Shown here: in pieces, positions 7,785-44,318 of the stretch
Position numbering within the stretch: the stretch's first letter is position 1
Layout of the letters: every line of letters starts with the position of its first letter
DNA from: Mucor racemosus
Lineage: Eukaryota > Mucoromycota > Mucoromycetes > Mucorales > Mucoraceae
Length of the DNA: 64,000 bases
Direction of reading: 5' to 3'
NCBI GenBank assembly: GCA_027405735.1
Contig: JAPEHQ010000006.1
Coordinates: forward strand, 248,001 to 312,000
The notes under the pieces: generated by a model
The model's database searches: none
Told to the model about the DNA's origin: nothing
Seen by the model: the letters and a program-made list of their open reading frames with translations, nothing else
Program-made: the position numbers and the translations under genes

Positions 7785-9917
7785 GTATAAAGGTTTACAG
7801 TAATAAGCTTGAATCAAGTAGGTACAGCATCGTAAATTCTTGAAAAAGTTTTCAAGTATTATAAAATCTCTTATTTTTAAGGCTTACAAGGCTTATAAGC
7901 AGAATATTAATTTCGAAAATTATTTTTGTCCAGATCATCAATTTTGACATTTTTTAAATTTTTTTTTTCTGGTTTTGCAAATTTAGAGTTAATTATACTA
8001 TCAATTATAAAAACAAAAAATATACACATATAAAAAATTTAGCGCTCTATTTGCTCAATAAAAAATATACAATTTTTTTATTGCAAAATATTACATGAAT
8101 ATCCTTTAACCAAAAAACCGTTTTTGGACCAAAAGTACAAAGTTTCATTACTTAACATTTAATATTAAGCTTTTATGAAATGTGTATTATCTATAGCTAC
8201 AATTTTCTCTCACAATGTAGTATCTTTAAACGTCGATTTTGGTATCAAAATTTGATTTTTCTGTTTTTTGATCAAAATCATGAGTGTTGGTAAGGGTAAA
8301 ATGAGCCCCGAAAATGTCCGCTACAAAATCTGAATTTTCAGATAGTACATGGTTAAATATAAGTAAAGTTTAAAAAAACCCGCTTTTTTATTTAAAACTT
8401 AGATATATACGATAGTATAAGAGACTTAGCCGTTCAATCGTGCTATGCTCAATTACGGCGTCGCTCTACGGGCTCGCTTTTGCGATTTTTTAATGAATGT
8501 ATGATATGACAGACGGTTCTTCTGGTAGAAAAAATGCATATTTCTATGATAACAGATATTGCCTATTTTGTTTAGTTTATGGGTTGTTTATGCGCTGTAA
8601 TACTGCTTTTACATTGTCTGAAATGAGCAATTTAGTAGGATCTTAATTGTGCTAAATAATGTAGTAAAGCCTTGAAAATCCTTTTCTACGTGTGTTGCTT
8701 TCATATTCCAAGGATATCCTCACCGTTTGATAAGGCACGTCAGACTATCAAGCTGGTGCAGTAAATTACGATGTGATTTACTAAAATAAAAAAATATAAA
8801 AAAATAAAAGCAGTAGAAATACAATTATAATCAGCTAAAGTTTTTATTACAAAAGATTTCTGAAGAGTTAAAATAATTGAAAAGTATGAGGGTATTTATA
8901 GTGATTTGGAGAACTTGGATACCATCAGACTTGAATGGATGTATATTTAGTAATCTTCCAGTTTTGAGTACATTGTTATTGATTTGATATTTTAAGGGGT
9001 AAATTGTATAGAGCATTGACCATAAGGGATTGTATGTCAAGTGTGACAATATCGACCTTTTGGGAAATGGTTGTTTTTGTTTATTTCTGTTATATCTATT
9101 TTATGTAACCTTGATTTTTAAGGGGTAGTTTTTATATGCTTGAATCTTATTTATATTGATAGTGCAACTACGATATAGATGAGTAGTTGACTAAATTGAT
9201 ATCTTTGTTTATTATCATTATTGATTTGGATAGAATCCTGTTTTGATATATATGTCATTTGTGTAATTGATTGCGCCGTGATCAAGGGTGCTATCATCTA
9301 CACGACATGTATGGTTCAAAAAGGGTATTTCATATTTTTAGCATGCGTTTGTTATTGTGTTCAATTGAAGCGTTTGTTTATTATCGTTGTTCACATTTCA
9401 AGTGGCATCATATTTTATGAGCGACACTTGAAATTTAGGTTGTTTTATTTTTATCAAGCGTTTTTAGTATGTAATTCCACTGCAGCTGGTATTCTTTTCT
9501 TTTATCTGAATACGCATGCTAACAAAAGGGACTAATGTTTTTAATGTAGGTAGCAGCAGTCTATATTTGAGACTGATATTTTTTATTTAATTGCATTCTA
9601 AGATCAAATATCATTATTTACTACTGGATTGTTGGACGTATTTCTTGATTACCAGATCAAATCAAAGGCAATAATGATATTTATATCTACTCAATGAAAA
9701 GATAGAACTGGCTACAAACCCACGAAATGTTCCAGAAAAGTGATAAAATTTCAAATGATATAGAAACAAAAAAAAGAATAATCTAATGTTTTGTCTTATA
9801 ACTATAGTTTCGATCGTAGCTACTGTATACTTGAAACCAAATCTTTTTACAGCTGACAATCGTAAACTAAAATAGTAAGTTTAAAAAAGATTAATTTGTT
9901 TAAATTTTATGAGTGAT
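7785..9917 (+). repeat. Dispersed repeat R1, copy 1, left part
   Basis: Left part of an R1 copy that resumes at 16139 after the LTR retrotransposon. It matches copy 2 (17175-19691) and the palindrome copies (37650-39685 minus, 40862-42896 plus). No open frame is shared by the copies. The best conserved segment, about 8410-8590, includes a locally GC-rich core (GGCGTCGCTCTACGGGCTCG) kept in all four copies. The 8758-9483 portion is a later insertion. Confidence 0.75.
8758..9483. mobile_element. 726-bp non-autonomous element with 7-bp duplication (hAT-like)
   Basis: Absent from the other R1 copies at the same point. It is flanked by direct AGCTGGT copies (8751-8757 and 9484-9490) and has imperfect inverted ends, GCAGTAAATTAC on the left and, reversed, GCAGTGGAATTAC on the right. 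No transposase is encoded. The right 120 bp, including the ATTTCAAGTG / CACTTGAAAT hairpin near 9397-9436, recurs in the outer palindrome arms (37310-37450 and 43095-43240). Confidence 0.6.
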
Positions 9918-10348
9918 TGTTGCATCCACCGGTTAATCGTAAGATAATGAACCTTTTGATTTGTAATCCTTAGTTTCAAGAAGTCAGCTAACTGATCTAT
10001 GATAACATTCTCGATTGTTCTTATTTTCTAAAGCAAGATCCGGGAAGCTGGATATGTGAGACATATTCACTTGTTGGATTTAGTTATATAAAATAAGCTG
10101 AACTTAAATGTGCTGTGTTACTAATGTACATAAAATGACCTGACAATGGAATGTCAGAAAGATATAATCGATCCAAAGCTGATCTTACAGATAATTGTAA
10201 TATAGAATTTGTATATAAATAGGACAAATTATTGATATTAAATAAAGATTCTCTTCAGTTTTTGTGTGTGATTTAATTTAACAAGTTCCTTTATTAAATT
10301 ATACATTTTTTCTTGCCATAATATTTATTCTAAATCTTTGGCATTTCA
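9918..10348 (+). repeat. 5' LTR of the chromovirus
   Basis: 431 bp, TGTTGCATCC at the start and TTGGCATTTCA at the end, identical to 15708-16138. A TATA box (GTATATAAATAGG) lies near 10211 and a polyadenylation-type AATAAAG near 10240. The bases directly after the LTR are T-rich and show no TGG-type tRNA primer site. Confidence 0.96.
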
Positions 10349-10414
10349 TTTTTTTAAATCCTATAATCCAAATCTTTTTGATTATCTTTATCTTGATACT
10401 TACGTAACCTGGTC

Positions 10415-13400
10415 ATGTCTACATCCGGTCCTGCTGCTTCTCCTATCAATGCTTCCTCTTCTATGGAAATTGATGATGTTTCTGGTTCTTCCTTGATTGG
10501 TGGTGTTGATCAAGAAGCTTCGTTTGAGGTTGCTCTTCAGCAACTTCGTCAGGATGTTCTTGCTCTTGGTATTCGTATTGCTACTGCTGGTAACAAGCCC
10601 CGTGAAGAGGTTGATCCCTTGCTCCTTTCATTGAAACAAAAGAAGTCGGATTTGCAAGCCTTGGAGGAGGTTGTATCTTTGGTCAATAACTCGTCTTCTG
10701 ATTCGTCCAATGAAGGTCAAAATTTTTCTGCTTCTGGTTCAGTGGTTCCTAGTGGTTTGCCGCTATTTCAATGGATTGGTGCTGTTAGAGAGGACAAGAA
10801 GGAGGTCTTTGCTGATATCGAAGAATGCCTTCGTCGGTTTGAAGATATATTGAGTAGTCATACACTTAATTTCGACAAACATTGGTTCCGTCTGTTGCCT
10901 CGTTGCTTGAGCAATGATCTTCGTGATTGGCTGAATGAGTATATTTTAACTGTCGGATCTAAGGTTTCTTGGATCAAGCTAAAAGCTTCCATCACTGGAC
11001 GGTATGGTGTGCCTAAGGAACAACTCAGGTTCGAAAGAATCAGAGAGTTTCTTGGGTGCGCTAAACTGGGAAACGAATCTGTTGACAACTTCTTGGAGCG
11101 ATTCAAGACGTTGAAGGCTAAGTCTGAAGTAACTGATCGTTTTATTGTGGCAAAAGTATTCTTTGATGCTTTCCCGGAATCTGTTTCTCGACTCATTATG
11201 GTGGCTATGAGTCAAGCCCCCGAGTCTTCGTTCTATGACTTAGACTATGTCTCTGCTGTTGCTCGTCGTATCGACAATGCTGTTGATAAGAAGGAGTCTA
11301 GTTCTAGCAATGGAAAGAAGCGTTCTTTTCCTGATGGTTCTTTTGTTTCTGCTTCTTCAGAAGCCAAGAAATCTAAATATGCTTCTGGGTTTTCTGGTGC
11401 TGCTCGTGCTGGTTCTTCTAGGCATTCAAGTTCTTCTGGTTCGTCTGGACAAGCTGCCAAATTTGTTTCTAAGTTTGGTAAGACAATGCAAGAACACATT
11501 GCTGAACGTACTTGCAAAGATTGTAATTTGCACTTTGGTCGTGGCCACAGCTGTGATACTGCTGTTCGTACTGTTCCTTCGAATAGTAATGGTAACAAGG
11601 TGGTCCGTAGTATGTCCAAGCGTCAATCAGTCAAGGCTGCTGTGGATGCCGCTTTATTGTCTGCCCGTGTGGATCATGCTGTAGACAATCAAAAGTCTTC
11701 TTCTTCTGCTGTTGTTGCTCCTGTTCCCTCTTCCAGTGATAATGATGTTATTAAGGAAGGTGATGCTGTCATGGATTGTGATGATGATGGTATCAACGAT
11801 GATAATGATCTTCGTGATCGTGCCCAGGCAACTTTGGTTGCTGAAATGTCGAATGTCTCTGTGGAAGACAACATTGATGTTATGCAGAATATGGCTGCTC
11901 AAGAATGTAAGTTTGACGCTGTATTTAGTGCTCCTCCTTCTATGCGTACCAATTCGATTTGTGTTCCAATTGTGGTTCAAAATGTGATTTGTTTCGGCTT
12001 AGTTGATACAGGAGCTACATTTAGTTGCATTACTAACGAATTCTTTCAATTTTTAGGAGGGAGTTCTCTGGGTACGTTTAAAGCAAGTGATGATAATAGC
12101 GTCGTTCAGCTTGCTCATGAAGTAACTACTGTCCCGAGAGAGGGTACGGTCGATTTAAGTGTTAGCTATAACAAATATAATAAAAATCATATTTTTGAAA
12201 TATTTTCATTTTATTCTGAAGAAAATGTGCATGTCTTACTTCGAATGGATATCTTGTCTAAACTTGGAATTGCAATTACTGGTCTTGTTAGCCAACATGG
12301 TTTTCAGACTGGCCCACGTATTCCTAGTCCTATTGATGATTCTATTGAACCTAATGCACATCCTTTTGGTGATGAGAAGGAAAGAGAGCCTTTTCTTTTA
12401 TTGCTAAATGAATTGTTAGACCAAAATTCTCAAATTGATATGAAAAATACTCAGTGTAATTTGCCAGATTCGATTATTAAACTTGATACTAAGCCAGGTT
12501 GCGTTGCATGGCGAGCACAGTATCCGTTACCCGAAGCTTACAGAGATGCTGTAGGTAAACAAATTCAAGTTTGGCTTGATGAGGGTGTAATTGTTCGTTC
12601 TGCTAGTCATACTCGATTTAATCATCCATTGTTGGTGGTGAAGAAAAAAGATGCTGATGGAAATTATTCTATGTCTAAACCTCGAGTGGTATGTGATGTT
12701 CGTAAACTCAATGCCATCTTGGAAGTTGATGATAAGCAACAATTGCCATTAATTTCTACAATTCACCAGAATATTGGTACCAAAATGATTCATACTTGCC
12801 TGGATATCCATGCGTGCTTCACAAGTTTTGGCCTTGACAGCCAACAGGCCCACAAGGTTTCATTTACTTGTCCCTTTTCCAACGTGCAATATACCCATAG
12901 GAAGGCTGCTTATGGTATTCGGCATGTCGGATCAGTAGTAGTTCGTACACTACAAACATTGCTCTCGGATCTGAATACTTCTTCGTCTTCTCCATCTGTC
13001 TTTCCGACTGATAAGTGTTGGTCAGCTGTGTGTTACGTCGATGATATTGTCCTGAGTAGTAATGGATCGTTAGCAGATCACTTTGAGTTGGTTGCTGAAG
13101 TAATTCGTCGTTTGACAAAGGCCAATTTGGTACTAAACCCAGAAAAAGTAGTTTTCGGGCAAAAGAGTATCCATTTACTTGGTTGGAGCGTGATTAGTGA
13201 TAAATTGATGCCTGATGGTAGAAAATTAACTAACATTGCTCAATGGCCTGCTATTAAGACTGGTCGTCAATTAGCTTCATTCTTGGGTTTGATGTCCTAC
13301 TTTCGAGCTTCTATTCCGTGCTATTCGCGTCTTACGCAAGATCTTGATAACTTGAAACAATATAAAGATTTAGCACCTGTTTGGAAAGAATCTCATGATA

Positions 13401-15493
13401 AAGCTGTAGCAAACCTTAAGAATGCCCTCACACAGGCATTAATGCTGTCTCCACCTGATTTTACTGTACGATTTCATTTGGCCACGGATGCATCGTTGAC
13501 TGCAATTGGATCTATTCTTTATCAAGTAATAGATGGTGAAATTCGGTATGTAGGTCTCGTTTTTCGAAAACTGTCAGTTTCAGAGAGAAATTATAGTACA
13601 ACAAAAAGGGAACTATTGGGAATTTGTTATTCCTTGGTAAAGTTTTATCGTTTTCTGTACATGAGAGAATTTACCTTACATACAGATCATAAGAGTTTGA
13701 TCTATTTGAATACTCAAGAAGTGCCGAATGCACTGATGTTGGGTTGGTGGGAGACTATCTTTTCGTATACTTTTGACATTGTTCATCTACCTGGTGTTCT
13801 CAACGTCATTCCTGACGCTTTATCGAGACTGTATGAAGATGATGATGCAGATGCTTCTGCACGACATCTTCTGGGGGGCAGGTATTATGCTGATGGAGGT
13901 GAAAGTAATAAACGAAAGAGAAAGGGTTCTAAATTGAAAGTGAGAACGCCTTCTACTTCAATGAAACGTTCTGTTAAAATTAGTAAGGTAGCACGAAATA
14001 AGTCTTTCGGTGATATAGATAAGCATGTAGCGGTAAAAGCCACTTTAGTGAAAGATGGTACTACATCAGCCTCTGTCTCGAAAAAGCGAAGAGAACTTAT
14101 TGTACGTACACTTAAATTTGCAGATTATATGACCCCCCCTCCTAGTGAAAGAGATAATATGATTATATCTCAACATTTACTTGGTCATTATGGAATTAAG
14201 CATGTCGAGCTTGCAATTCATAAAGAAGGGTTTCATTGGAAAAACATTAGAAAAGATATTGAAAGAATATTGTCCGAATGCATTGAATGTAATAAATACA
14301 ACATTGCGAGAGAAGGATATCACCCTTTTCGTAGTACTAAGGCTGATTTGCCTCTTGACCATTGGTGCATGGATCTTGGTGACATGGGTGTTACAAGTTC
14401 ATTTGGTAGTAATTTTCTGTTCGTATTAACAGATTATTTTACAAGATTTACAATTGTAAGATGTATACCTGATAAACATGCTACCACAATTGCTAGAGAA
14501 TTACTGCAAATTTTCAGTTTGTTTGGATGGCCTAAACATTTAACGTCCGATCGAGGAAGTGAGTGGGCCAATGAAGTTGTTGATACTATGATGGAGATCA
14601 GTGGTATCGACAAACGATTGTCTCTTGCTTATAATCCCTTAGGCAACGCTACGGCGGAAAGCTATATAAAGCTTGTTAAGACAACAACCATAAAGCTGTT
14701 AAATGGTAAACGAGATCAATGGGAACATTATGTTCCATGGGTTAATTACTGTATTAATACTAAATATGCAAGGTTGCATAAATCTCGACCCTATACACTT
14801 TTATTTAATCGCCAGCCTAATGGGCTTGAAGATTATTCAAAGGTGGAACCTACTTTAAGTTTGGAAAAAGCTGATGAAAAATTAATAAACGAACGATACC
14901 AGTTTGTACAAGATGTTCTCATTCCGGCTATCTCTAAACGTATAGTAGAGACTCAAGAAAAGGATCATGCAAAGTTTGCAAAGAGACACAAGATTGTTAC
15001 TGAGCACTATCCAATTGGTAGCAAAGTAATGATCAAGAATGTGAATCGACAAAACAAACTAGATGAGCGCTATGAAGGCCCTTACTTGATTCACAATATA
15101 ACTGATAAAGGATCTTATGTACTAGCAGATAGAACTGGTGCATTACTTAGTAGAGATGTACCTACTCATCATATTAATTACAAAGCTGCTGCAAACCCTG
15201 AGCCAACTACGGTCGATGAGTTTTCAAAACAACATTTTGAGATTCAGGCTGTAATTGATCATAAGGGTAAGCCTGGTAATTATTTGTATCTTGTACGATG
15301 GAAGGGCTTTGATAACCCTAATGAAGATACTTGGGAACCTGTTGAAAACTTTAATTCTACCAGACATATTGAATTGTATTGGGGTAGAAGAAATGGTGCA
15401 AAGGTTACAGGTAAACGTCGCTCAGCTCCTAAATCAGTTAATTTAAGAAATTCTGCTATTCGCAAGAAGCGTGGTGGAAAACGAAGGTCTTAA
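10415..15493 (+). CDS. Gag-pol polyprotein of a Ty3/Gypsy chromovirus
   Basis: 1692 residues in a single frame, with no gag/pol frameshift or stop. The gag capsid region spans about residues 110-290. A divergent zinc knuckle has C367, C370, H378 and C380. The protease has DTGA at 531-534. Reverse transcriptase has D797 and YVDD at 874-877. RNase H has its first Asp near 1025 (ATDAS) and a DHKSL block. Integrase has an HHCC finger (H1254, C1289, C1292) and a catalytic triad D1320, D1379, E1415, with exactly 35 residues between the last two. A C-terminal chromodomain spans about 1608-1660 (YLVRWKGF, DTWEPVENF). All key residues are present. The last 30 residues are strongly basic. Chromodomains usually direct insertion to particular chromatin; that role here is by analogy. 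Confidence 0.96.
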   Translation: MSTSGPAASPINASSSMEIDDVSGSSLIGGVDQEASFEVALQQLRQDVLALGIRIATAGNKPREEVDPLLLSLKQKKSDLQALEEVVSLVNNSSSDSSNEGQNFSASGSVVPSGLPLFQWIGAVREDKKEVFADIEECLRRFEDILSSHTLNFDKHWFRLLPRCLSNDLRDWLNEYILTVGSKVSWIKLKASITGRYGVPKEQLRFERIREFLGCAKLGNESVDNFLERFKTLKAKSEVTDRFIVAKVFFDAFPESVSRLIMVAMSQAPESSFYDLDYVSAVARRIDNAVDKKESSSSNGKKRSFPDGSFVSASSEAKKSKYASGFSGAARAGSSRHSSSSGSSGQAAKFVSKFGKTMQEHIAERTCKDCNLHFGRGHSCDTAVRTVPSNSNGNKVVRSMSKRQSVKAAVDAALLSARVDHAVDNQKSSSSAVVAPVPSSSDNDVIKEGDAVMDCDDDGINDDNDLRDRAQATLVAEMSNVSVEDNIDVMQNMAAQECKFDAVFSAPPSMRTNSICVPIVVQNVICFGLVDTGATFSCITNEFFQFLGGSSLGTFKASDDNSVVQLAHEVTTVPREGTVDLSVSYNKYNKNHIFEIFSFYSEENVHVLLRMDILSKLGIAITGLVSQHGFQTGPRIPSPIDDSIEPNAHPFGDEKEREPFLLLLNELLDQNSQIDMKNTQCNLPDSIIKLDTKPGCVAWRAQYPLPEAYRDAVGKQIQVWLDEGVIVRSASHTRFNHPLLVVKKKDADGNYSMSKPRVVCDVRKLNAILEVDDKQQLPLISTIHQNIGTKMIHTCLDIHACFTSFGLDSQQAHKVSFTCPFSNVQYTHRKAAYGIRHVGSVVVRTLQTLLSDLNTSSSSPSVFPTDKCWSAVCYVDDIVLSSNGSLADHFELVAEVIRRLTKANLVLNPEKVVFGQKSIHLLGWSVISDKLMPDGRKLTNIAQWPAIKTGRQLASFLGLMSYFRASIPCYSRLTQDLDNLKQYKDLAPVWKESHDKAVANLKNALTQALMLSPPDFTVRFHLATDASLTAIGSILYQVIDGEIRYVGLVFRKLSVSERNYSTTKRELLGICYSLVKFYRFLYMREFTLHTDHKSLIYLNTQEVPNALMLGWWETIFSYTFDIVHLPGVLNVIPDALSRLYEDDDADASARHLLGGRYYADGGESNKRKRKGSKLKVRTPSTSMKRSVKISKVARNKSFGDIDKHVAVKATLVKDGTTSASVSKKRRELIVRTLKFADYMTPPPSERDNMIISQHLLGHYGIKHVELAIHKEGFHWKNIRKDIERILSECIECNKYNIAREGYHPFRSTKADLPLDHWCMDLGDMGVTSSFGSNFLFVLTDYFTRFTIVRCIPDKHATTIARELLQIFSLFGWPKHLTSDRGSEWANEVVDTMMEISGIDKRLSLAYNPLGNATAESYIKLVKTTTIKLLNGKRDQWEHYVPWVNYCINTKYARLHKSRPYTLLFNRQPNGLEDYSKVEPTLSLEKADEKLINERYQFVQDVLIPAISKRIVETQEKDHAKFAKRHKIVTEHYPIGSKVMIKNVNRQNKLDERYEGPYLIHNITDKGSYVLADRTGALLSRDVPTHHINYKAAANPEPTTVDEFSKQHFEIQAVIDHKGKPGNYLYLVRWKGFDNPNEDTWEPVENFNSTRHIELYWGRRNGAKVTGKRRSAPKSVNLRNSAIRKKRGGKRRS

Positions 15494-15695
15494 AGGCTAA
15501 AAGTAAAGTAGTAACAGAGTCTTTTCCTCATTGTATATAGATTTTTCCTACTGAATAGGTTTTTAAGAGGTTTTTACTGACTAACTTCTACTTTACAAAC
15601 ATTTGTATATACATGGTCTAAAAATAGTAACATATTGTTATGTCGTTGTTATCTTTAATGACTTTAAGGATTAATCTAAAAAGGTGTCATAATCT

Positions 15696-15704
15696 GGGAG
15701 AGGG
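15696..15704 (+). promoter_or_regulatory. Polypurine tract for plus-strand priming
   Basis: GGGAGAGGG lies 3 bases before the 3' LTR, the usual place of the polypurine tract. Confidence 0.7.
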
Positions 15705-15707
15705 CTA

Positions 15708-16138
15708 TGTTGCATCCACCGGTTAATCGTAAGATAATGAACCTTTTGATTTGTAATCCTTAGTTTCAAGAAGTCAGCTAACTGATCTATGATAACATTC
15801 TCGATTGTTCTTATTTTCTAAAGCAAGATCCGGGAAGCTGGATATGTGAGACATATTCACTTGTTGGATTTAGTTATATAAAATAAGCTGAACTTAAATG
15901 TGCTGTGTTACTAATGTACATAAAATGACCTGACAATGGAATGTCAGAAAGATATAATCGATCCAAAGCTGATCTTACAGATAATTGTAATATAGAATTT
16001 GTATATAAATAGGACAAATTATTGATATTAAATAAAGATTCTCTTCAGTTTTTGTGTGTGATTTAATTTAACAAGTTCCTTTATTAAATTATACATTTTT
16101 TCTTGCCATAATATTTATTCTAAATCTTTGGCATTTCA
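15708..16138 (+). repeat. 3' LTR of the chromovirus
   Basis: Identical in reading to the 5' LTR over 431 bp. It is followed by the GTGAT target duplication. Confidence 0.96.
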
Positions 16139-21420: not shown

Positions 21421-21908
21421 ACAATTTTAACTCCCATACTTGTGAACATGTATTTTTTGTCAGTTTTTCACTGTAATTAAAGTCCGTATTACCTCGTTTT
21501 TCCTGCAGGTAATACGTCCATATTTTTTTAGTGTAGAGAAAATTGTGTAAGCAATGCAAAAAAATTGAGAACATTGTAGTATAATAGTAATATTTTCCAA
21601 ATAAGCAAATAAAAAAGGATCGAGGAATATAGAGAGCCCATAGAAAGTATAGAAAAATCTGGAATAAAACGTTGGAGTATGCATGCAAAATGCGAGTTTC
21701 ACCATTGTAATAAGAGCGTATTACTACACCGTATTCCGCTGTAAAGTAATATGTGAGAGTTTATGGATACATACAATCTTATTTATAGAAAGAATAATAA
21801 TAAAGACTAGTAACATTTATCATGGAGAACGTAGGCTTTATTACTAGAAAAACTAATGGTAAAAGAAAGAACAAAGAGCTTCTAGGTCTTGGTTTAAAAG
21901 ACTATTTA
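21421..21908. other. Non-coding, nothing recognised
   Basis: AT-rich sequence between the tRNA-like unit and the Tc1/mariner element. Two short overlapping frames on the minus strand have no motif. Confidence 0.4.
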
Positions 21909-23553
21909 CAGTGACCCCCAAAACTGTCCCAATGTTTCCTAGTTTTGAGTTTAGTATGATTTTCAGGTACAACAAATATATTTAAAGTACGACATATTTT
22001 ATATATTTCGGAAGATCAATTAATTTCCTTTTATATTAAACTAAAAAAATCTCGAATTTCATTGGTCCGCTATATTTATACCCTGTCTGGGACAGCATAT
22101 GCATTGGGACAGTTTTGAGAGCTTACGCGGGAAAAAATATAATCCTATTTAATAGTCCGTCCAAAGGCCGTTTCTTTCCAAATATACTTTCACACAATTG
22201 GGCATGCTATCAAAAACTTTTTGGCACTCCTCCTGTTTAATGGTGTTGTACCAAACCTCAGTTACACGCTCCGAAAGATCAAGGATTCATTTGGGCGCTG
22301 TTTTGTACTCATTAAGCCTCCTCTTTAATAAGATCCACATATTTTCGATCGGATTCAAGTCAGGAGATAGCGGAGACCAATTTATTACTTCATAGTCTTG
22401 ATCCAATAGATATTCCTTGACTAAATTTGACGTATGCTTTGGAGCATTGTCATGCTGGAAAATGATCTGATCACGACGAAGGCCTAATTTATCCAAAGTA
22501 AAATTGAAAGTCCGCTCCAAATCGTCTTCAAAGATTTGTTTATACAAATGTCGATCCACAGTACCCTCAATTCTGCATATCTATCGAACTCCGGCATACG
22601 TAATGGCCCTCCAAAACATGACACTCCCACCGCCATCTATAACGGTCATCTTCACATAATTAGATTTCAAGCTCTCACCGTCTCAAATCCAAAGCCAGCT
22701 TCTTCCATTTAAGTTAAATCTATTAGTGTTGGTCTCATCTGATCAAATCACCCTTTTCCGTTCGTCGGAAGTCCAATCCTTGCGAAGATGACACCATTCT
22801 AAACGCCTTTTAATATTAGCCGGAGACAGCATAGGTTTTTTAGGCTTGATAATTGCTCCTATGCTCCCCCTACGGAGCGATTTCGGACAGTTTCCGGGAT
22901 TTTATTAACTCCGAAATTACTCTCAAGTAGTTTAAAATGTTACTTGAATTTTTGACTGCTTTTTTTGTTGCTTGGCGAACACAAAACCTTTCATCAGATT
23001 CAAACAGCAATTTAAGTCGACCCCTTTTAGACACACCCAAACTTGTGCAACACCGTTTCTTAATTTTTTCCACAACAGGCTTACCTACATGCAATATTTC
23101 CGCAACTTGGCGCACTGATTTACCGGTGTTTAAAAGACTAATGGCATCATTCTCCTTATTCTCCTGAAGTTTTTTCATATTAATTTTCAATAGGCCAAAG
23201 CACCAGAATCTGTATATGAAATATGCATCTTTTTTATTTTCTTTACCCAATTAGGTGTTTATTTACTGATTTCCAAACGCTCAAGATACTAGTGCAAATT
23301 ATGGTTCTACAATCATCGATTATCTAAAAATCAAAAATGGCTCTCAAAACTGTCCCAATGCATATACTGTCCCAAATTGGGTATAAATTCAATTGACCAA
23401 TAAAATTCGAGATTTTTTTAATTTAATATAAAAGGAAATTAATTGATCTTCCGAAATATATAAAATATGTCGTACTTTAAATATATTTGTTGTACCTGAA
23501 AATCATACTAAACTTAAAACTAAGAAACATTGGGACAGTTTTGGGGGTCACTG
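21909..23553 (-). mobile_element. Tc1/mariner element with long terminal inverted repeats
   Basis: 1645 bp, beginning CAGTGACCCCC and ending GGGGGTCACTG, flanked by TA on each side (21907-21908 and 23554-23555), the signature of this superfamily. The inverted repeats extend about 200 bp inward with few differences and include a second inner GGGACAGTTTTGAGAG copy. The transposase inside is broken. Confidence 0.93.
22149..23178 (-). pseudogene. Tc1/mariner transposase, inactivated
   Basis: Reading from 23178 (MKKLQENKEN) there is an N-terminal helix-turn-helix (SVRQVAEILHV), then a frame break near 22870-22900. The DDE region follows with in-frame stops. Recognisable catalytic blocks are WSDETN (its Trp codon now TGA), FQHDNAPKHTS and SPDLNPIENMW, the D, D and E of a DD34E transposase. 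The frame ends LWTDY-stop at 22149. At least two of the stops are TGG to TGA changes. The family is typically about 340 residues, which this would match without the damage. The element could move only if another copy supplied the enzyme. Confidence 0.88.
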
Positions 23554-23555
23554 TA

Positions 23556-35237: not shown

Positions 35238-36228
35238 TTTATATTAATAATAATTTAAGGTGAAGAAGAAGAAAAAAAAAGTTAGTAGATGTTACGAGGG
35301 AGGAACCAAACGACGAATGTCCCTGCCTTTCCACGCTTTAAACCACCGATATTTAGATGCGTCACCCCGGTGCTTTTTTATTTTCTCGTAGTACACGAGG
35401 GAGAAATACGAGAACCAAATGTTGTTGTGTAGCTAGCTCAATATTTATGTCAAATGTTTATTGAAAAGCCAGCCTACCAATATTATAAATTTTAAAAAAA
35501 GCTTGATCTATCGAATGAAAGACTTCTAGAACAGGGCTGTATTTTGTAAATAAGAGTACACTAAATATACAGTTAGTATAGTTTGGATCAAGCAGAAATA
35601 ATGGTTTAGCATTTGCGTTTTTTATGGGATATTCAATTTAAAAATCGAATTAAAGGATGACCTCAATGAATGAGTATAGCTCAAAAAGTATGATTTTATT
35701 CCTGACAAGCTACAATATATAATTCAACTGGGTATTTTATTATATAGCTACAGTTTCAAAAGTAAAGTTTAGACGACACAGAATAAAATTTGCGAACAAA
35801 TGAGAATGAGAATTGAGACCAAGTAAGAGTAAAATTGGGACAAGCAGAGAATTGATTTAAGATGAATACAAGAAAAAAAGTAGGAAAGGGAGATTTAATA
35901 AAGATATTACATTTTGATAACAAATAGTTATTTACGTTGAACCAACACGAAGGCAAGCCAACGCCATCAAACTATATACAGTATGTTTTCAAATAAATCT
36001 TTTATGAATTGGTCAAAATTGATAAAATCTGTTTTTTTTTTGGGTAGAAAGACGTACTTGTATATCAGATTGGATAGCTTTCAATCATCCGTAGTCGCCC
36101 AACTTTTTTCAATAACTAGCTTCATACCAAACGATTTTTGGGATATACCTTAGATACTGTCAAATAGACATAAATTAATCGCATTATGCTACCTATTCAT
36201 AAATTTATTTTATATTTCACGAAAGACC
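35238..36228. other. Intergenic, then edge of repeat R2
   Basis: 35238-36080 shows no gene; it holds the ACP1 promoter. From about 36090 the sequence matches 51595-51720, showing that repeat R2 starts here before the palindrome proper begins. Confidence 0.5.
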
Positions 36229-37649
36229 CAAAACCAAGTAAAATTCGGTGCTTTTTCCTTAAAAACTGGATCCGATTTTTCATCCCTGCTCTACTTTTTG
36301 TTTTCATTAAATAACACGAAGAAAAAAATATATGCCAATGTACCTGAGATGCTCAAATTTAATCCAAAAACACGTATCCAGAAATATCCAATTTTTTGCA
36401 GTTAATATTAATTTTTCAATGCTAATGTTTCAGATTTTTACGCGTATTTCACTACTAAAAATGGAAAACTTTGGGGCTTCGTATCTCTGCAAAAAATTAA
36501 GCAATACTCACACTTTCTAATAATAAAACTTGCTTGTTTTGAAGTGCTCTATAACATATTTGGGTACAAAAAAATTCTGAGCACTTTTATTTTTTTTTTC
36601 AATTTTTTGGTATTTTTTGAAGTAGATTTCGAAATATTCGTTAAACTGAGCAGCAGTTTTTTTTACATTCATATCATCATCCTCGTTGAGCTCTCTCGGA
36701 ATCAATTTAGTTGTTTTCAAAATATTGATTTTTCGTGGAGATATCCTCAAAAATGCGCACAAACGAATGCTTTCGCTTCTAGCATCAAATTTTCCCTTAT
36801 ATACCCTCATCCCAAACTCTGAATTTGAAAAAAAAAATGACAAGAATCTTGTTTTCTCTACGAAAAATGCAGCTAGAAGATTCAGCAATAAATCGATCGA
36901 TAGATAATTTTGTAGTGCATTACTTCCATTACTTAAATTTGAAATATACTTATAAAAAGTAATGCGTATTTTTAAAAAACCTCCAAAATTTCAATTGCAT
37001 TTTACGCAAAATTTAATGTAAAACATTTGCCTGACTTTTGTTTAGATGGATATAGAATTTAAAATTGTACAAAAACCATATAATATGCTATTTCAACTTA
37101 CTTTGCAGTTCATGAGCCATTAAGCAATTTTGTTTTTTGCATCATTTTCTAGTCGATTTTACAACAACATATCAATTTTGAAACCCAGATACTATCGGGT
37201 CAAGCTATAATATGAACTATTATTTTGATTATCTCGACGAAAAACCATTATTTTTCGCTGAAATAAAAAAAAGGCAAGGTAGCTTCAGTTGGATCTATGA
37301 TGTTGTAAATACTGTAGTGGAATTACATACTAAAAATGCCTGATAGTAATAAAATAATCTAATTTTCAAGTGTCACTCATACAATATGATGCCACTTGAA
37401 ATGTGAACAGCAATAATAAACAAACAGCGCTCCAATTGAACACAATAACAAAAACAGACGAGCATGCTGCATTCATATATTTTTCGTATCAAGATGTCGA
37501 TGGCAATGTCACAGTTTGTTTTCAGAATACAATATATATTAAAAATCTAATTATGGAATCATTATTCCAGGATCGTAAAATGCTAGGTGCAAATGTACTA
37601 TTATAGTAGTTGCAAATTTACAAAAAGTTCACGTTGTTTATTAATATAT

Positions 37650-39685
37650 CACTACGGCCGACCTGTGCTGCACAATATGATTTTGTTGTGCCCAGGTGGG
37701 CTGCACACTATAGCCTGAGCTGTTGTGCCGTTGTGCCCACTGAATATGGCTAAAAAGATAACAAGATGCACATAGGCACAACAAGCGAAACTGCACACGA
37801 GCACAACGAAAAGCCTGTATGTGCAGGAATATAGATTCTGTTCATGTGCATAACATTACTTCCATATGTGCATAATAATAGAATTGCACATAAGGATATC
37901 ATCATTATCCCTATTTGTGCATAATATATATAAAATCTGACCATGAGCATAACGACATGATCGTATGGGCACAAATTTGTACATGCGCATCGTGCCTTTC
38001 TCAAAATTCCATTACATTTTTTACTGGAATGGGGTTTTAAATTACATTTGCTTTTATTAATATAAATCATAGACAATACAATTCAACAATACGTTGTTGT
38101 TGATGTAGAGCAATACATGTAAGAGCCAATATATTTACGATTATCCTTATTTGTAAATACGTTTATAAGCTATGATGTTTACAGAAACAACGGTTTTTGC
38201 TCGAGCATAAACTTAAATAACACTTACTGCTTAAATTTATATGCAAGCCAAATCTAAGGTTATAGATGTTTATCCAACATAAGATTTAAACAAACTAACC
38301 TTCTTCTTTAAACTTACTGTTTTAGTTTACGAGTGTCAGCTGTAAAAAAAAATTTTGTTTTCAAGTATAGCTACTACGATCAAAACTATGATTATTATAC
38401 AAGACATTCGATTATTCTTTTTTTATTTTTGTTTCTATATCATTTAAAATTTTACCGCTTTTCTGAAACATTTCGTGGGTTTGTAGTCAGTTCTAGCTTT
38501 TTATTGGGTATATATAAATATTATTGTTGCATTCGATTTGATCTGGTAATCATCAAAAAATACGTCCAATAATACAGTAGTAAATAATAATATTTGATCG
38601 TAGAATGCAGTTAAATGAAAATATTATTCTCTAATATAACGACTGCTATCTATATTATTAGAAACATTAGTTCCTTATTATGTTAGCATGCGTATTCAGA
38701 TAAAAGAAAAGAATACCAGCATGATAATAGTCTGATAATATGCCTTATCAAACGGTGAATAATATCCTTGGAATATGAAAACAAAAAAAAGAGAAACAAC
38801 ACACGTAGAAAAGGATTTTCAAGGCTTTACATTATTTAGCACAATTAAGGTCATGCTAAATTGCTCATTTCAGACAATGTAAAAGCAGTATTACAGCGCA
38901 TAAACAACCCATAAACTAAACAAAATAGGCAATATCTGTTATCATAGAAACATGCATTTTTTCTACCAGAAGAACCGCCTGTCATATCATACATTCATTA
39001 ACAAATCGCAAAAGCGAGCCCGTAGAGCGACGCCGTAATTGAGCATAGCACGATTGAACGGCTAAGTCTCTTATACTATCGTATATATCTAAGTTTTAAA
39101 TAAAAAAGCGGGGTTTTTTAAACTTTTCTTATATTTAATCATGTACTGTCTGAAAATTCAGATTTTGTAGCGGACATTTTTGGGGCTCATTTTACCCTTA
39201 CCAACACTCATGATTTTGATCAAAAAACAGAAAAATCAATTTTTGATACCAAAATCAACGTTTAAATATACTACATTGTGAGAGAAAATTGTAGGTATAA
39301 ATAATACACATTTTATAAAAGCTTAATATTAAATGTTAAGTAATGAAACTTTGTACTTTTGGCCCAAAAACGGATTTTTGGTTAAAGGATTTTCATGTAA
39401 TATTTTGCAATAAAATTATTGTATATTTTTTATTGAGCAAATAGAGCGCTAAATGTTGTACATGCTTATATTTTTTGTTTTTTTAATTGGTAATATAATT
39501 AACTCTAGATTTGCAAAATCAGAAAAAAAAAATTAAAAAATGTCAAAATTGATGATCTGGACAAGAATAATTTTCGAAATTAATATTCCGCATATAAGCC
39601 TTGTAAATCTTAAAAATAAGAGGTTTTATAATACTTGAGAATTTTTTCAAGAATTAATGATGCTGTACCCACTTGATTCAGGCTT
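37650..39685 (-). repeat. Repeat R1 in left palindrome arm
   Basis: Minus-oriented R1 copy. Its terminus at 37650 reads CACTACGGCCGACCTGTGC, followed by about 340 bp of TGTGC/GCACA words. It contains neither the chromovirus nor the 726-bp insertion of copy 1. Confidence 0.75.
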
Positions 39686-39833
39686 CACTATGAAAAAGAA
39701 ATCCCTTAATTCTCTTAATTGTGCCACATTAAGGGAAATAAGACAAAATTTAAAAAAAATAAGCAGTGAAAATTTTCTTATTTTCCTTAATGTGGCACAA
39801 TTAAGAGAATTAAGGGATTTTTTCTTCATAGTG
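39686..39833. mobile_element. CACTA-type MITE, left arm copy
   Basis: 148 bp, starting CACTATGAAAAAGAAATCCC and ending in the inverse, with inverted repeats of about 60 bp each and only a 10-20 bp centre. It is flanked by direct CTT (39683-39685 and 39834-39836). The uninterrupted site is visible in R1 copy 1 near 7803-7815 (AATAAGCTTGAATCAAG). CACTA ends with a 3-bp duplication define the En/Spm (CMC) superfamily. Confidence 0.85.
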
Positions 39834-40235
39834 CTTATTACTGTAAATATTTATACATGCTTTTATAATCGCCAATTTTTCTGCATGTAGATATCGACTT
39901 TAGACCAAAAAAGCATTGATTATAACTTAGATGATGGAACAAAATGACTAACTAGTTTTGGAAGCTTTTTTTGTTCGAGGAAAATATCTTAACACGCCTT
40001 AACATTAACAGTTACGTTAATAATTCATTTCCAAATAAACAATAGGAAAAACATGTACTTACGCCTTCTACTTGATTTCAGTTTATAAAAATTATTGGTC
40101 TTTTTGTTGTAGTTTTAAACGTAAATAAAAGAGCTGAGGAAAGAGTAGGGAAGAAAAAAGATTCTGTGTCTTGCAGACAAAAATTTACAAATAAGGTGGC
40201 CAAAGTATTGTCGATTTTTTTTTGTCGTTTTTTTC

Positions 40236-40308
40236 AAAAATTTGTCGTATTTATGAAAAGGTGATATTTGTGCCTATCTAATGAATACAAGAAAATGTAA
40301 TTTTTTGG
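40236..40308. other. Palindrome spacer
   Basis: 73 nt of unpaired AT-rich sequence between the arms, bounded by GTCGTTTTTTT on the left and AAAAAAAAAACGAC on the right. Confidence 0.85.
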
Positions 40309-40713
40309 AAAAAAAAAACGACAAAAAAAAAATCGACAATACTTTGGCCACCCTATTTGTAAATTTTTGTCTGCAAGACACAGAATCTTTTTTCTTCCCT
40401 ACTCTTTCCTCAGCTCTTTTATTTACGTTTAAAACTACAACAAAAAGACCAATAATTTTTATAAACTGAAATCAAGTAGAAGGCGTAAGTACATGTTTTT
40501 CCTATTGTTTATTTGGAAATGAATTATTAACGTAACTGTTAATGTTAAGGCGTGTTAAGATATTTTCCTCGAACAAAAAAAGCTTCCAAAACTAGTTAGT
40601 CATTTTGTTCCATCATCTAAGTTATAATCAATGCTTTTTTGGTCTAAAGTCGATATCTACATGCAGAAAAATTGGCGATTATAAAAGCATGTATAAATAT
40701 TTACAGTAATAAG

Positions 40714-40861
40714 CACTATGAAGAAAAAATCCCTTAATTCTCTTAATTGTGCCACATTAAGGAAAATAAGAAAATTTTCACTGCTTATTTTTTTTAAATT
40801 TTGTCTTATTTCCCTTAATGTGGCACAATTAAGAGAATTAAGGGATTTCTTTTTCATAGTG
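40714..40861. mobile_element. CACTA-type MITE, right arm copy
   Basis: Mirror of 39686-39833 with the same CACTATG ends. Because it sits at the mirrored position, it was in place before the inverted duplication. Confidence 0.85.
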
Positions 40862-42896
40862 AAGCCTGAATCAAGTGGGTACAGCATCATTAATTCTTGA
40901 AAAAATTCTCAAGTATTATAAAACCTCTTATTTTTAAGATTTACAAGGCTTATATGCGGAATATTAATTTAGAAAATTATTTTTGTCCAGATCATCAATT
41001 TTGACATTTTTTAATTTTTTTTTCTGATTTTGCAAATCTAGAGTTAATTATATTACCAATTAAAAAAACAAAAAATATAAGCATGTACAACATTTAGCGC
41101 TCTATTTGCTCAATAAAAAATATACAATAATTTTATTGCAAAATATTACATGAAAATCCTTTAACCAAAAATCCGTTTTTGGGCCAAAAGTACAAAGTTT
41201 CATTACTTAACATTTAATATTAAGCTTTTATAAAATGTGTATTATTTATACCTACAATTTTCTCTCACAATGTAGTATATTTAAACGTTGATTTTGGTAT
41301 CAAAAATTGATTTTTCTGTTTTTTGATCAAAATCATGAGTGTTGGTAAGGGTAAAATGAGCCCCAAAAATGTCCGCTACAAAATCTGAATTTTCAGACAG
41401 TACATGATTAAATATAAGAAAAGTTTAAAAAACCCCGCTTTTTTATTTAAAACTTAGATATATACGATAGTATAAGAGACTTAGCCGTTCAATCGTGCTA
41501 TGCTCAATTACGGCGTCGCTCTACGGGCTCGCTTTTGCGATTTGTTAATGAATGTATGATATGACAGGCGGTTCTTCTGGTAGAAAAAATGCATGTTTCT
41601 ATGATAACAGATATTGCCTATTTTGTTTAGTTTATGGGTTGTTTATGCGCTGTAATACTGCTTTTACATTGTCTGAAATGAGCAATTTAGCATGACCTTA
41701 ATTGTGCTAAATAATGTAAAGCCTTGAAAATCCTTTTCTACGTGTGTTGTTTCTCTTTTTTTTGTTTTCATATTCCAAGGATATTATTCACCGTTTGATA
41801 AGGCATATTATCAGACTATTATCATGCTGGTATTCTTTTCTTTTATCTGAATACGCATGCTAACATAATAAGGAACTAATGTTTCTAATAATATAGATAG
41901 CAGTCGTTATATTAGAGAATAATATTTTCATTTAACTGCATTCTACGATCAAATATTATTATTTACTACTGTATTATTGGACGTATTTTTTGATGATTAC
42001 CAGATCAAATCGAATGCAACAATAATATTTATATATACCCAATAAAAAGCTAGAACTGACTACAAACCCACGAAATGTTTCAGAAAAGCGGTAAAATTTT
42101 AAATGATATAGAAACAAAAATAAAAAAAGAATAATCGAATGTCTTGTATAATAATCATAGTTTTGATCGTAGTAGCTATACTTGAAAACAAAATTTTTTT
42201 TTACAGCTGACACTCGTAAACTAAAACAGTAAGTTTAAAGAAGAAGGTTAGTTTGTTTAAATCTTATGTTGGATAAACATCTATAACCTTAGATTTGGCT
42301 TGCATATAAATTTAAGCAGTAAGTGTTATTTAAGTTTATGCTCGAGCAAAAACCGTTGTTTCTGTAAACATCATAGCTTATAAACGTATTTACAAATAAG
42401 GATAATCGTAAATATATTGGCTCTTACATGTATTGCTCTACATCAACAACAACGTATTGTTGAATTGTATTGTCTATGATTTATATTAATAAAAGCAAAT
42501 GTAATTTAAAACCCCATTCCAGTAAAAAATGTAATGGAATTTTGAGAAAGGCACGATGCGCATGTACAAATTTGTGCCCATACGATCATGTCGTTATGCT
42601 CATGGTCAGATTTTATATATATTATGCACAAATAGGGATAATGATGATATCCTTATGTGCAATTCTATTATTATGCACATATGGAAGTAATGTTATGCAC
42701 ATGAACAGAATCTATATTCCTGCACATACAGGCTTTTCGTTGTGCTCGTGTGCAGTTTCGCTTGTTGTGCCTATGTGCATCTTGTTATCTTTTTAGCCAT
42801 ATTCAGTGGGCACAACGGCACAACAGCTCAGGCTATAGTGTGCAGCCCACCTGGGCACAACAAAATCATATTGTGCAGCACAGGTCGGCCGTAGTG
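40862..42896 (+). repeat. Repeat R1 in right palindrome arm
   Basis: Plus-oriented R1, ending with the TGTGC field (about 42551-42890) and GGTCGGCCGTAGTG at 42896. Together with the terminus at 37650 it bounds a 5.2-kb segment with CACTA...TAGTG ends. Confidence 0.75.
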
Positions 42897-44318
42897 ATAT
42901 ATTAATAAACAACGTGAACTTTTTGTAAATTTGCAACTACTATAATAGTACATTTGCACCTAGCATTTTACGATCCTGGAATAATGATTCCATAATTAGA
43001 TTTTTAATATATATTGTATTCTGAAAACAAACTGTGACATTGCCATCGACATCTTGATACGAAAAATATATGAATGCAGCATGCTCGTCTGTTTTTGTTA
43101 TTGTGTTCAATTGGAGCGCTGTTTGTTTATTATTGCTGTTCACATTTCAAGTGGCATCATATTGTATGAGTGACACTTGAAAATTAGATTATTTTATTAC
43201 TATCAGGCATTTTTAGTATGTAATTCCACTACAGTATTTACAACATCATAGATCCAACTGAAGCTACCTTGCCTTTTTTTTATTTCAGCGAAAAATAATG
43301 GTTTTTCGTCGAGATAATCAAAATAATAGTTCATATTATAGCTTGACCCGATAGTATCTGGGTTTCAAAATTGATATGTTGTTGTAAAATCGACTAGAAA
43401 ATGATGCAAAAAACAAAATTGCTTAATGGCTCATGAACTGCAAAGTAAGTTGAAATAGCATATTATATGGTTTTTGTACAATTTTAAATTCTATATCCAT
43501 CTAAACAAAAGTCAGGCAAATGTTTTACATTAAATTTTGCGTAAAATGCAATTGAAATTTTGGAGGTTTTTTAAAAATACGCATTACTTTTTATAAGTAT
43601 ATTTCAAATTTAAGTAATGGAAGTAATGCACTACAAAATTATCTATCGATCGATTTATTGCTGAATCTTCTAGCTGCATTTTTCGTAGAGAAAACAAGAT
43701 TCTTGTCATTTTTTTTTTCAAATTCAGAGTTTGGGATGAGGGTATATAAGGGAAAATTTGATGCTAGAAGCGAAAGCATTCGTTTGTGCGCATTTTTGAG
43801 GATATCTCCACGAAAAATCAATATTTTGAAAACAACTAAATTGATTCCGAGAGAGCTCAACGAGGATGATGATATGAATGTAAAAAAAACTGCTGCTCAG
43901 TTTAACGAATATTTCGAAATCTACTTCAAAAAATACCAAAAAATTGAAAAAAAAAATAAAAGTGCTCAGAATTTTTTTGTACCCAAATATGTTATAGAGC
44001 ACTTCAAAACAAGCAAGTTTTATTATTAGAAAGTGTGAGTATTGCTTAATTTTTTGCAGAGATACGAAGCCCCAAAGTTTTCCATTTTTAGTAGTGAAAT
44101 ACGCGTAAAAATCTGAAACATTAGCATTGAAAAATTAATATTAACTGCAAAAAATTGGATATTTCTGGATACGTGTTTTTGGATTAAATTTGAGCATCTC
44201 AGGTACATTGGCATATATTTTTTTCTTCGTGTTATTTAATGAAAACAAAAAGTAGAGCAGGGATGAAAAATTGGACCCAGTTTTAAGGAAAAAGCAGTGG
44301 ATTTTACTTGGTTTTGAT

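What the first reader, a model, noticed from the sequence alone, without database searches (positions are those of the whole stretch)
36229..44318. Near-perfect 8-kb palindrome with a 73-nt spacer
Two arms of about 4.0 kb are inverse copies with a constant coordinate sum (80546-80548). The MITE and R1 copies are at mirrored positions, so the duplication came after those insertions. Long perfect palindromes are unstable and rare in assembled genomes. A fold-back assembly or read artefact is the main alternative. Against a trivial artefact, I see two substitutions (39565, 39576), homopolymer differences near 39523 and at the centre, and a diverged outer 50 bp. The right breakpoint falls inside repeat R2. 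Basis: direct reading; origin is inference.
Basis: partly seen in the sequence, partly recalled or inferred. Interest (0 to 1): 0.85.

Follow-up and report, generated by a model that had tools for sequence, protein, structure and literature searches.

The report
Homogenised transposon palindrome in a fungus
An 8-kb near-perfect DNA palindrome in a mould of the order Mucorales is probably real rather than an assembly error, and is one of at least fifteen near-identical mirror-image repeats found in its genome, which suggests that this fungus often rewrites one side of an inverted repeat from the other.

Summary
The palindrome is there: window 36229-40240 mirrors 40305-44316 around a 64-72 nt loop. 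The genome is a 53-Mb Mucorales fungus. It is not isolated: near-identical inverted pairs were confirmed at 14 loci of a repeat called A, plus one pair of its end piece, though 7 of the 14 were checked over 200-350 bp only. Among linked A pairs, near-identical are 12 of 12 inverted under 10 kb, 2 of 6 inverted at 10-25 kb, 0 of 5 direct under 25 kb. In six palindromes read at length, arm differences crowd into the outer 150 bp (46 events/900 bp) and inner 50 bp (11/300), against 13 in 22.8 kb of interior. In the window's outer 52 bp, left and right differ as much as unrelated R2 copies do. Best reading: inverted-repeat-directed DNA synthesis copied one side onto the other, from a short A/T-tract hairpin out to an inverted R2 pair. 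A long-lived palindrome kept alike by gene conversion is the main rival. A fold-back artefact is unlikely, but no reads were available.

The parts
36229..40240 (+). left arm of the palindrome (inferred donor side)
   Evidence: self-alignment; R2 is continuous across the left outer edge, and the outside 150 bp, the edge and the 1.2-kb R2 all have C6:245578 as nearest other copy
40305..44316 (-). right arm, inverted near-identical copy (inferred recipient side)
40241..40304 (.). loop; 64 nt as cut here, up to 72 nt (40237-40308) if the T/A tracts are counted in
   Evidence: 40190-40356 folds as ssDNA at -47.7 kcal/mol, z -11.6, as any such palindrome would
36103..37298 (+). R2 repeat copy on the left, crossing the outer edge of the arm at 36229
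   Evidence: many of the 40 listed matches align from query base 3-4 to 1195-1199 of 36100-37300; alignment
44265..44316 (-). outer 52 bp of the right arm: R2 sequence that differs from the left edge as much as unrelated R2 copies do
   Evidence: L-R 88.5%; best other copies 90.2% for L, 90.6% for R; L-R distance 0.132, other pairs median 0.154
37312..37452 (+). fragment of another repeat, also at 9348-9485
37650..40191 (+). A composite repeat (A plus the end piece first labelled MITE2), interrupted by MITE1
39686..39833 (.). MITE1, 148 bp, itself an 84% palindrome, lying inside A (A resumes at 39833-39851)
   Evidence: the name MITE is a label, no target duplication was checked
39523..39576 (+). 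cluster of three interior arm differences, all at A-family variable sites
40208..40234 (+). inner end of left arm: TTGTCG/T-tracts, facing A-tracts/CGACAA at 40309-40339; inferred priming site

Best explanation
This is a real chromosomal palindrome made by inverted-repeat-directed DNA synthesis. Shown: near-identical arms, an inner end at a hairpin-prone A/T tract, and an outer end inside R2 sequence that on the two sides differs like two separate R2 copies. Inferred: a 3' end at the A-tract folded back over the ~70-nt loop (or a fork switched template there), copied the left arm outward for about 4 kb and, on reaching R2, crossed onto an inverted R2 already present on the right, so that the right flank was kept and whatever lay between was overwritten. 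The same kind of event has happened at other places in this genome, chiefly at inverted copies of the A repeat less than 10 kb apart. I know of no function for the cell; I take it as a by-product of repeat density and repair or replication.
For: Window outer 52 bp: left-right distance 0.132, within that of other R2 copies (105 pairs, median 0.154, one third at or below 0.132; one of the 15 'others' is the right edge itself trimmed by a base); 5 of 6 differing sites show both states in other R2 copies. C6b: left-right 67.6%, left to best others 75.6-86%, right to best other 73.5%. Sharp step from 46 events/900 bp (outer) to 13/22.8 kb (interior). Orientation and distance: near-identical are 12 of 12 inverted A pairs under 10 kb, 2 of 6 at 10-25 kb, 0 of 5 direct under 25 kb; sampled A copies of different loci are 85.5-92% (7 comparisons). 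Insertions with target duplication in one arm only: Tc1/mariner-type in C18, LTR-like in C1b. In yeast ssDNA, inverted repeats 30 kb apart and up to 25% different still fold back (PMC10164571, abstract and discussion); breaks near inverted repeats give inverted duplications by Pol delta (PMC10622511, abstract).
Against: The window edge test rests on 52 bp, i.e. on one or two differences, and on the R2 copies held, not all in the genome. C1b's outer edges are clearly related (L-R distance 0.072, below all 28 other pairs). C26's edge is not R2, and mirrored homology of 78-83% goes on for over 2 kb outward. C1b and C26 thus look like older inverted repeats later homogenised. C18 and C1a show almost no outer-edge divergence (0 and 1 events). 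No pre-event chromosome is available, so the overwriting step is inferred. Mre11, and by a partial match (34 of 110 positions) SAE2, which restrain fold-back duplications in yeast, are present.
Confidence: 0.5

Rival explanations
1. A long-lived palindrome whose arms are kept alike by continuing arm-to-arm gene conversion, as in primate Y palindromes; edges diverge because conversion fades near the ends of homology.
For: Edge divergence is expected. C26 lies in an older 78-83% mirrored repeat; in C1a and C26 the identical core stops at a one-sided insertion beyond which 78-85% homology continues; in C1b 34 bp of 94% homology follow the one-sided insert on the inner side. C1b's edges are related. 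A-family variants in one window arm suggest that ectopic conversion occurs.
Against: The window's edges (and C6b's) differ like separate R2 copies, so no ancestral full-arm duplication is needed there; no mirrored homology beyond the arms in 7-kb flanks of win, C1b and C6b at E 1e-4. Direct A pairs are not near-identical (0 of 5), though direct pairs can also be lost by deletion.
Confidence: 0.34
2. Assembly or read artefact: whole-genome-amplification chimeras, missed adapters or fold-back reads built into the contig.
For: Such palindromes occur: 40-50% of amplified Arabidopsis PacBio reads, 0.5% of reads of the unamplified control (PMC6218980, passages). No reads could be checked. Many palindromes in one assembly is what amplified DNA would give.
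Against: Flanks differ on the two sides; the right edge is R2 sequence unlike the left; one-arm insertions with target duplications in C18 and C1b; loops of 362-3367 bp in the six other palindromes measured. Near-identical pairs go with A (28 of 132 listed copies) rather than R2 (2 of 116 listed copies; two further linked R2 pairs not read, and R2 copies in the C1b and C6b arms not in the lists); random artefacts should hit both alike.
Confidence: 0.08
3. A transposon with very long terminal inverted repeats, or an inverted dimer of A.
For: A is in all 14 A palindromes, but by construction of the search; about half of the C1a arm (696 of 1441 bp) matches the window's A.
Against: Arms read at length differ in length (1.4-6.1 kb), content, A orientation (+/- in win, C18, C9; -/+ in C26, C2, both C1, C6:918k) and loop; outer ends differ and on the left of the window R2 simply runs on. 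Target duplications at the outer ends were not formally sought.
Confidence: 0.04
4. Inverted-repeat regional centromeres of the Candida tropicalis kind.
For: There, 3-4 kb inverted repeats flank the centromere cores (PMC7292649, passages).
Against: Near-identical pairs lie at two places each on C1 and C5 and three on C6; genes for an Atg4-like peptidase, a G-alpha protein and RPC2 lie 3-16 kb away; loops of five palindromes share nothing except ~200 bp between C26 and C1b.
Confidence: 0.02

Closest known systems
Fold-back / inverted-duplication rearrangements at inverted repeats in yeast (PMC10164571 abstract and discussion; PMC6103520 and PMC10622511 abstracts)
   Same: inverted repeats up to 30 kb apart and up to 25% different; copying primed by fold-back; palindromic product
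   Different: the yeast products go through dicentric or hairpin-capped chromosomes healed by telomere capture; here both flanks are kept in an interstitial palindrome, at many places
Template switching between short imperfect inverted repeats (PMC8604942, abstract)
   Same: arms of an imperfect inverted repeat become identical
   Different: short repeats there; here arms of 1.4-6.1 kb
Palindromes with arm-to-arm gene conversion (human Y as cited in PMC5490193 passages; willow W, PMC7023750, listing only)
   Same: arms nearly identical inside
   Different: those are on sex chromosomes and bear genes; here dispersed, made of repeats and tied to one repeat family. The springtail palindromes of PMC5490193 showed no sign of concerted evolution
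Homogenised inverted repeats at Candida tropicalis centromeres (PMC7292649, passages)
   Same: kilobase inverted repeats made alike in a fungus
   Different: all seven centromeres there; here several per contig with unlike loops

Membership tests
Inverted-repeat-directed palindromic duplication | near-identical inverted arms | tested here: met
Inverted-repeat-directed palindromic duplication | short inverted homology at the inner junction that was there before | tested here: inconclusive
   A/T tracts and TTGTCG/CGACAA at the window centre are part of the arms and cannot be told from copied sequence; C26, C18 and C6b show mismatched then matching inner ends, C1b and C1a none
Inverted-repeat-directed palindromic duplication | outer end in separate inverted homology | tested here: met
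   window: distance like unrelated R2 copies, on 52 bp; C6b alike; not so in C1b; C26 not R2
Inverted-repeat-directed palindromic duplication | palindrome absent from the pre-event chromosome | not testable with these tools
   no relative of this genome is held
Gene-converting palindrome | old arms with young-looking sequence | tested here: inconclusive
   supported for C26, partly C1b and C1a; not for the window
Long-TIR transposon | fixed termini | tested here: not met
   outer ends, content and A orientation vary; left flank continues R2
Regional centromere | one per chromosome, CENP-A bound | tested here: inconclusive
   several loci per contig speak against it; CENP-A not testable
Assembly artefact | no spanning read | not testable with these tools
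   no reads available

The most novel reading that the evidence does not exclude
In this fungus, inverted copies of the A repeat within about 10 kb of each other are rewritten into near-perfect multi-kilobase palindromes by an active, orientation-specific copying process, so that large palindromes are a steady-state feature of the genome (perhaps tens to hundreds) rather than rare accidents, with A acting as the fork-stall or break site that starts it; such palindromes of repeats might also be read into hairpin RNA that feeds RNAi against the same repeats.
Probability: 0.22. Interest if true: 0.8.

Novelty: new variant of a known kind. Interest (0 to 1): 0.55.

Why it matters
Long palindromes are known to be unstable and are usually thought rare in assemblies. 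A fungus with at least fifteen near-identical inverted pairs found by following one repeat gives a natural series on which the ends, loops and homology limits of inverted-repeat-directed copying can be read. It makes testable whether such palindromes arise once and are soon lost, or persist under gene conversion. It also warns that tools which split palindromic reads could destroy real structure in such genomes.

Tried and rejected
Long-TIR transposon: ends, content and A orientation vary. Loss of Mre11 or Sae2/CtIP as cause: an Mre11_DNA_bind match (E 5.5e-45) and a partial SAE2 match (34 of 110 positions, E 7e-5) are in the genome (the 14 control genomes ring in 0 for both); other parts of the pathway were not searched. 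MITE1 hairpin as shared trigger: in the DNA held it occurs at the window, at C6:372.8k and, weaker, at one C26 place. R2 as sole driver: of 4 listed inverted R2 pairs under 10 kb, one is near-identical (the window's), one is about 78% (window 51593), two were not read. The B pair C1:4348535/4350091 (scores 647 and 661) was not read and looks unlike. The end-piece pair C1:1760360/1768273 (401 and 399) was not read. An unbiased genome-wide count was planned and could not be done. In the 145-kb stretch of C6 around the window, one palindrome, the window's, passed 97% and 800 bp. Papers: searches listed none that I recognised from title and abstract start as describing this in Mucorales; open-licence papers only, not read in full. 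That some Adineta vaga palindromes were assembly artefacts is recalled only.

Limits of the A-pair count. If palindromes arise by copying, the second A copy is itself a product, so '12 of 12' shows that close inverted A pairs are all recent or all homogenised, not which. The lists are the best 40-41 matches of each of four A queries (132 distinct copies); the genome holds more, and only neighbours in one list were paired. Of the 14 near-identical A pairs, seven rest on arms of 1.4-6.1 kb (C2 cut by the fetch at 1.86 kb), C9 on 350 bp with two single-base gaps, five on 200 bp with no difference, one on 200 bp with one difference. Not near-identical: inverted C6:355k (652 of 682 columns), C6:265k/287k (about 90%), C22 and C14:1252k (unequal scores only, not read); direct C5:2827k (95%), C8 (343 of 353), C6:255k (645 of 688), C21 (195 of 200), C6:537k (unequal scores only). 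In the script one superfluous N stands before C6:353000, so positions beyond it are shifted by one base.

Full report
Setting. The window is G000:C6:248001-312000 of a 53.2-Mb genome in 54 contigs; the window is 33% G+C. Frames around it match alginate lyase, Peptidase_M24, peptidase C54 (Atg4), G-alpha and RPC2 domains. Much of the rest is repeats, among them an LTR retrotransposon at 9918-16138 with two identical 431-bp LTRs.

Observation. 36229-40240 and 40305-44316 are inverse copies with 13 difference events in 4012 bp: six in the outer 46 bp, four within 46 bp of the inner end, three at 39523-39576. The centre folds as a strong hairpin, as a palindrome must. The arm is made of R2 (about 36103-37298, cut by the arm edge at 36229), a fragment of another repeat, and an A composite of about 2.5 kb with MITE1 inside. 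The two arm frames of 108 and 123 aa that were scanned matched nothing in Pfam.

It is one of many. Searching the genome with 801 bp of the arm returned inverted neighbours of equal score. Six palindromes, the window's included, were read at length: C26 with 5.9-kb arms and a 1092-bp loop, C1 (3.65 Mb) 4.6 kb/1070, C6 (0.92 Mb; 'C6b') 6.1 kb/3367, C18 2.0 kb/1813, C1 (5.56 Mb; 'C1a') 1.44 kb/1212 (C1 at 3.65 Mb is 'C1b'). A seventh, C2, has at least 1857-bp arms at 99.95% and a 362-bp loop. Samples support C9 (349 of 351 columns) and, by the A end piece, C16 (344 of 346), and C4, C21, C6:121k, C5:2656k, C14:1320k, C5:824k (199-200 of 200 each). Across four A queries (132 distinct copies) linked neighbours within 25 kb number 18 inverted and 5 direct (one-sided binomial 0.005). 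Near-identical are 12 of 12 inverted under 10 kb, 2 of 6 inverted at 10-25 kb and 0 of 5 direct (3 of these 5 under 10 kb). A copies of different loci were 171-184 of 200 in 7 comparisons. The direct pairs are somewhat more alike than that (94-97.5% where read), so they are related too, but not near-identical. R2 behaves differently: 2 of 116 listed copies are in a confirmed near-identical pair, the window's; two linked inverted R2 pairs under 10 kb were not read, and the R2 copies in the C1b and C6b arms are not among the 116.

Edges. In the six palindromes read at length the outer 150 bp carry 46 events in 900 bp, the inner 50 bp 11 in 300, the remaining 22.8 kb 13. The outer excess comes from C6b (23), C26 (8), C1b (8) and the window (6); C18 has 0 and C1a 1. 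For the window's outer 52 bp left and right are 88.5% alike; the left's best other copy is C6:245578 at 90.2% (its next are lower, 84.6%), the right's best are two other copies at 90.6%. Their distance, 0.132, lies inside that of other R2 pairs (median 0.154; a third at or below 0.132), and at 5 of 6 differing sites both states occur in other copies. They behave as separate R2 copies that face each other, on only 52 bp. C6b is alike (67.6% left-right; 73.5-86% to best others). C1b is not: its edges are closer to each other than any other pair (0.072 against a minimum of 0.101). In C26 the edge (82%) is not R2, and mirrored homology of 78-83% continues for over 2 kb with a ~640-bp one-sided gap. 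In C1a the identical core ends at a 529-bp one-sided insertion with 85% homology beyond.

Against an artefact. C18's left arm holds a ~1.35-kb Tc1/mariner-type element (336-aa frame with DDE_3 and HTH_Tnp_Tc3_2) with a TA duplication; the right arm has the empty site, and the arms go on at 100% for 240 bp beyond it. C1b's left arm holds a 348-bp TGTT...AACA insert with a TATTT duplication, absent on the right ('LTR-like' rests on its ends only); on its inner side 34 bp of 94% homology follow. In the window, 39565, 39576 and the 39523 A-run lie at sites where A copies differ among themselves (30 aligned rows, some loci twice and the window's own included). These are hard to get from one folded-back read. 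The first two concern other palindromes, and read support for the window itself is untested.

Mechanism. Shown: identical interiors; an inner A/T tract able to form a hairpin; an outer end in R2 sequence that differs like separate copies; dependence on inverted orientation and short distance in the A lists. Inferred: fold-back or template switch at the inner tract, copying outward, return by recombination between inverted R2 copies, with the left arm as donor because left R2 is continuous and its outside, edge and whole share the nearest relative C6:245578. In yeast, inverted repeats up to 30 kb apart and up to 25% divergent interact in ssDNA (PMC10164571, abstract and discussion); 1-kb-spaced repeats near a break anneal and divert repair to break-induced replication (PMC6103520, abstract); fold-back duplications need Pol32 and are frequent without Sae2 or Mre11 (PMC10622511, abstract); arms of short inverted repeats are made alike by template switching (PMC8604942, abstract). 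The origin-dependent model (PMC10766186, abstract) starts from an inverted triplication; the window self-alignment shows two copies of the arm, not three. Continuing arm conversion remains a serious rival, better than mine for C26 and perhaps C1b and C1a; both may act.

Comparison and novelty. Converting palindromes, fold-back duplications and homogenised centromeric repeats are known kinds. What differs is a dispersed, repeat-only, orientation-specific set that goes with one repeat family in a Mucorales genome. My searches listed no report that I recognised as this, but they cover open-licence papers only and were seen as listings. I rate it a new variant of a known kind.

Noticed in passing
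window 9918-16138: LTR retrotransposon with reverse transcriptase, RNase H, integrase and chromodomain in one 1692-aa frame and two identical 431-bp LTRs, lying inside an A-composite copy; looks like a very recent insertion.
   Followed up: partly
L009, about 1056-2404 (C18): Tc1/mariner-type element with a 336-aa open transposase frame and TA duplication in one arm of another palindrome.
   Followed up: yes
L015-L017 (C6:354-373 kb): Mirrored repeat pieces of 86-95% about 15-18 kb apart that hold close relatives of the window's A and MITE1; may be a related earlier event.
   Followed up: partly
window 21907-22122 / 23340-23555: 216-bp inverted repeat, 94%, 1.2 kb apart; possible DNA transposon ends.
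   Followed up: no
G000:C5:824472-848929 (L063, L064): Inverted A pair 24 kb apart, identical over the 200 bp sampled; possibly a much larger palindrome.
   Followed up: partly
window 36517-36888 (mirror 43658-44029): 123-aa frame in R2 that resembles, by eye, a 97-aa frame in another R2 copy (L012:973-1266) but has no Pfam match; what R2 is remains unknown.
   Followed up: partly
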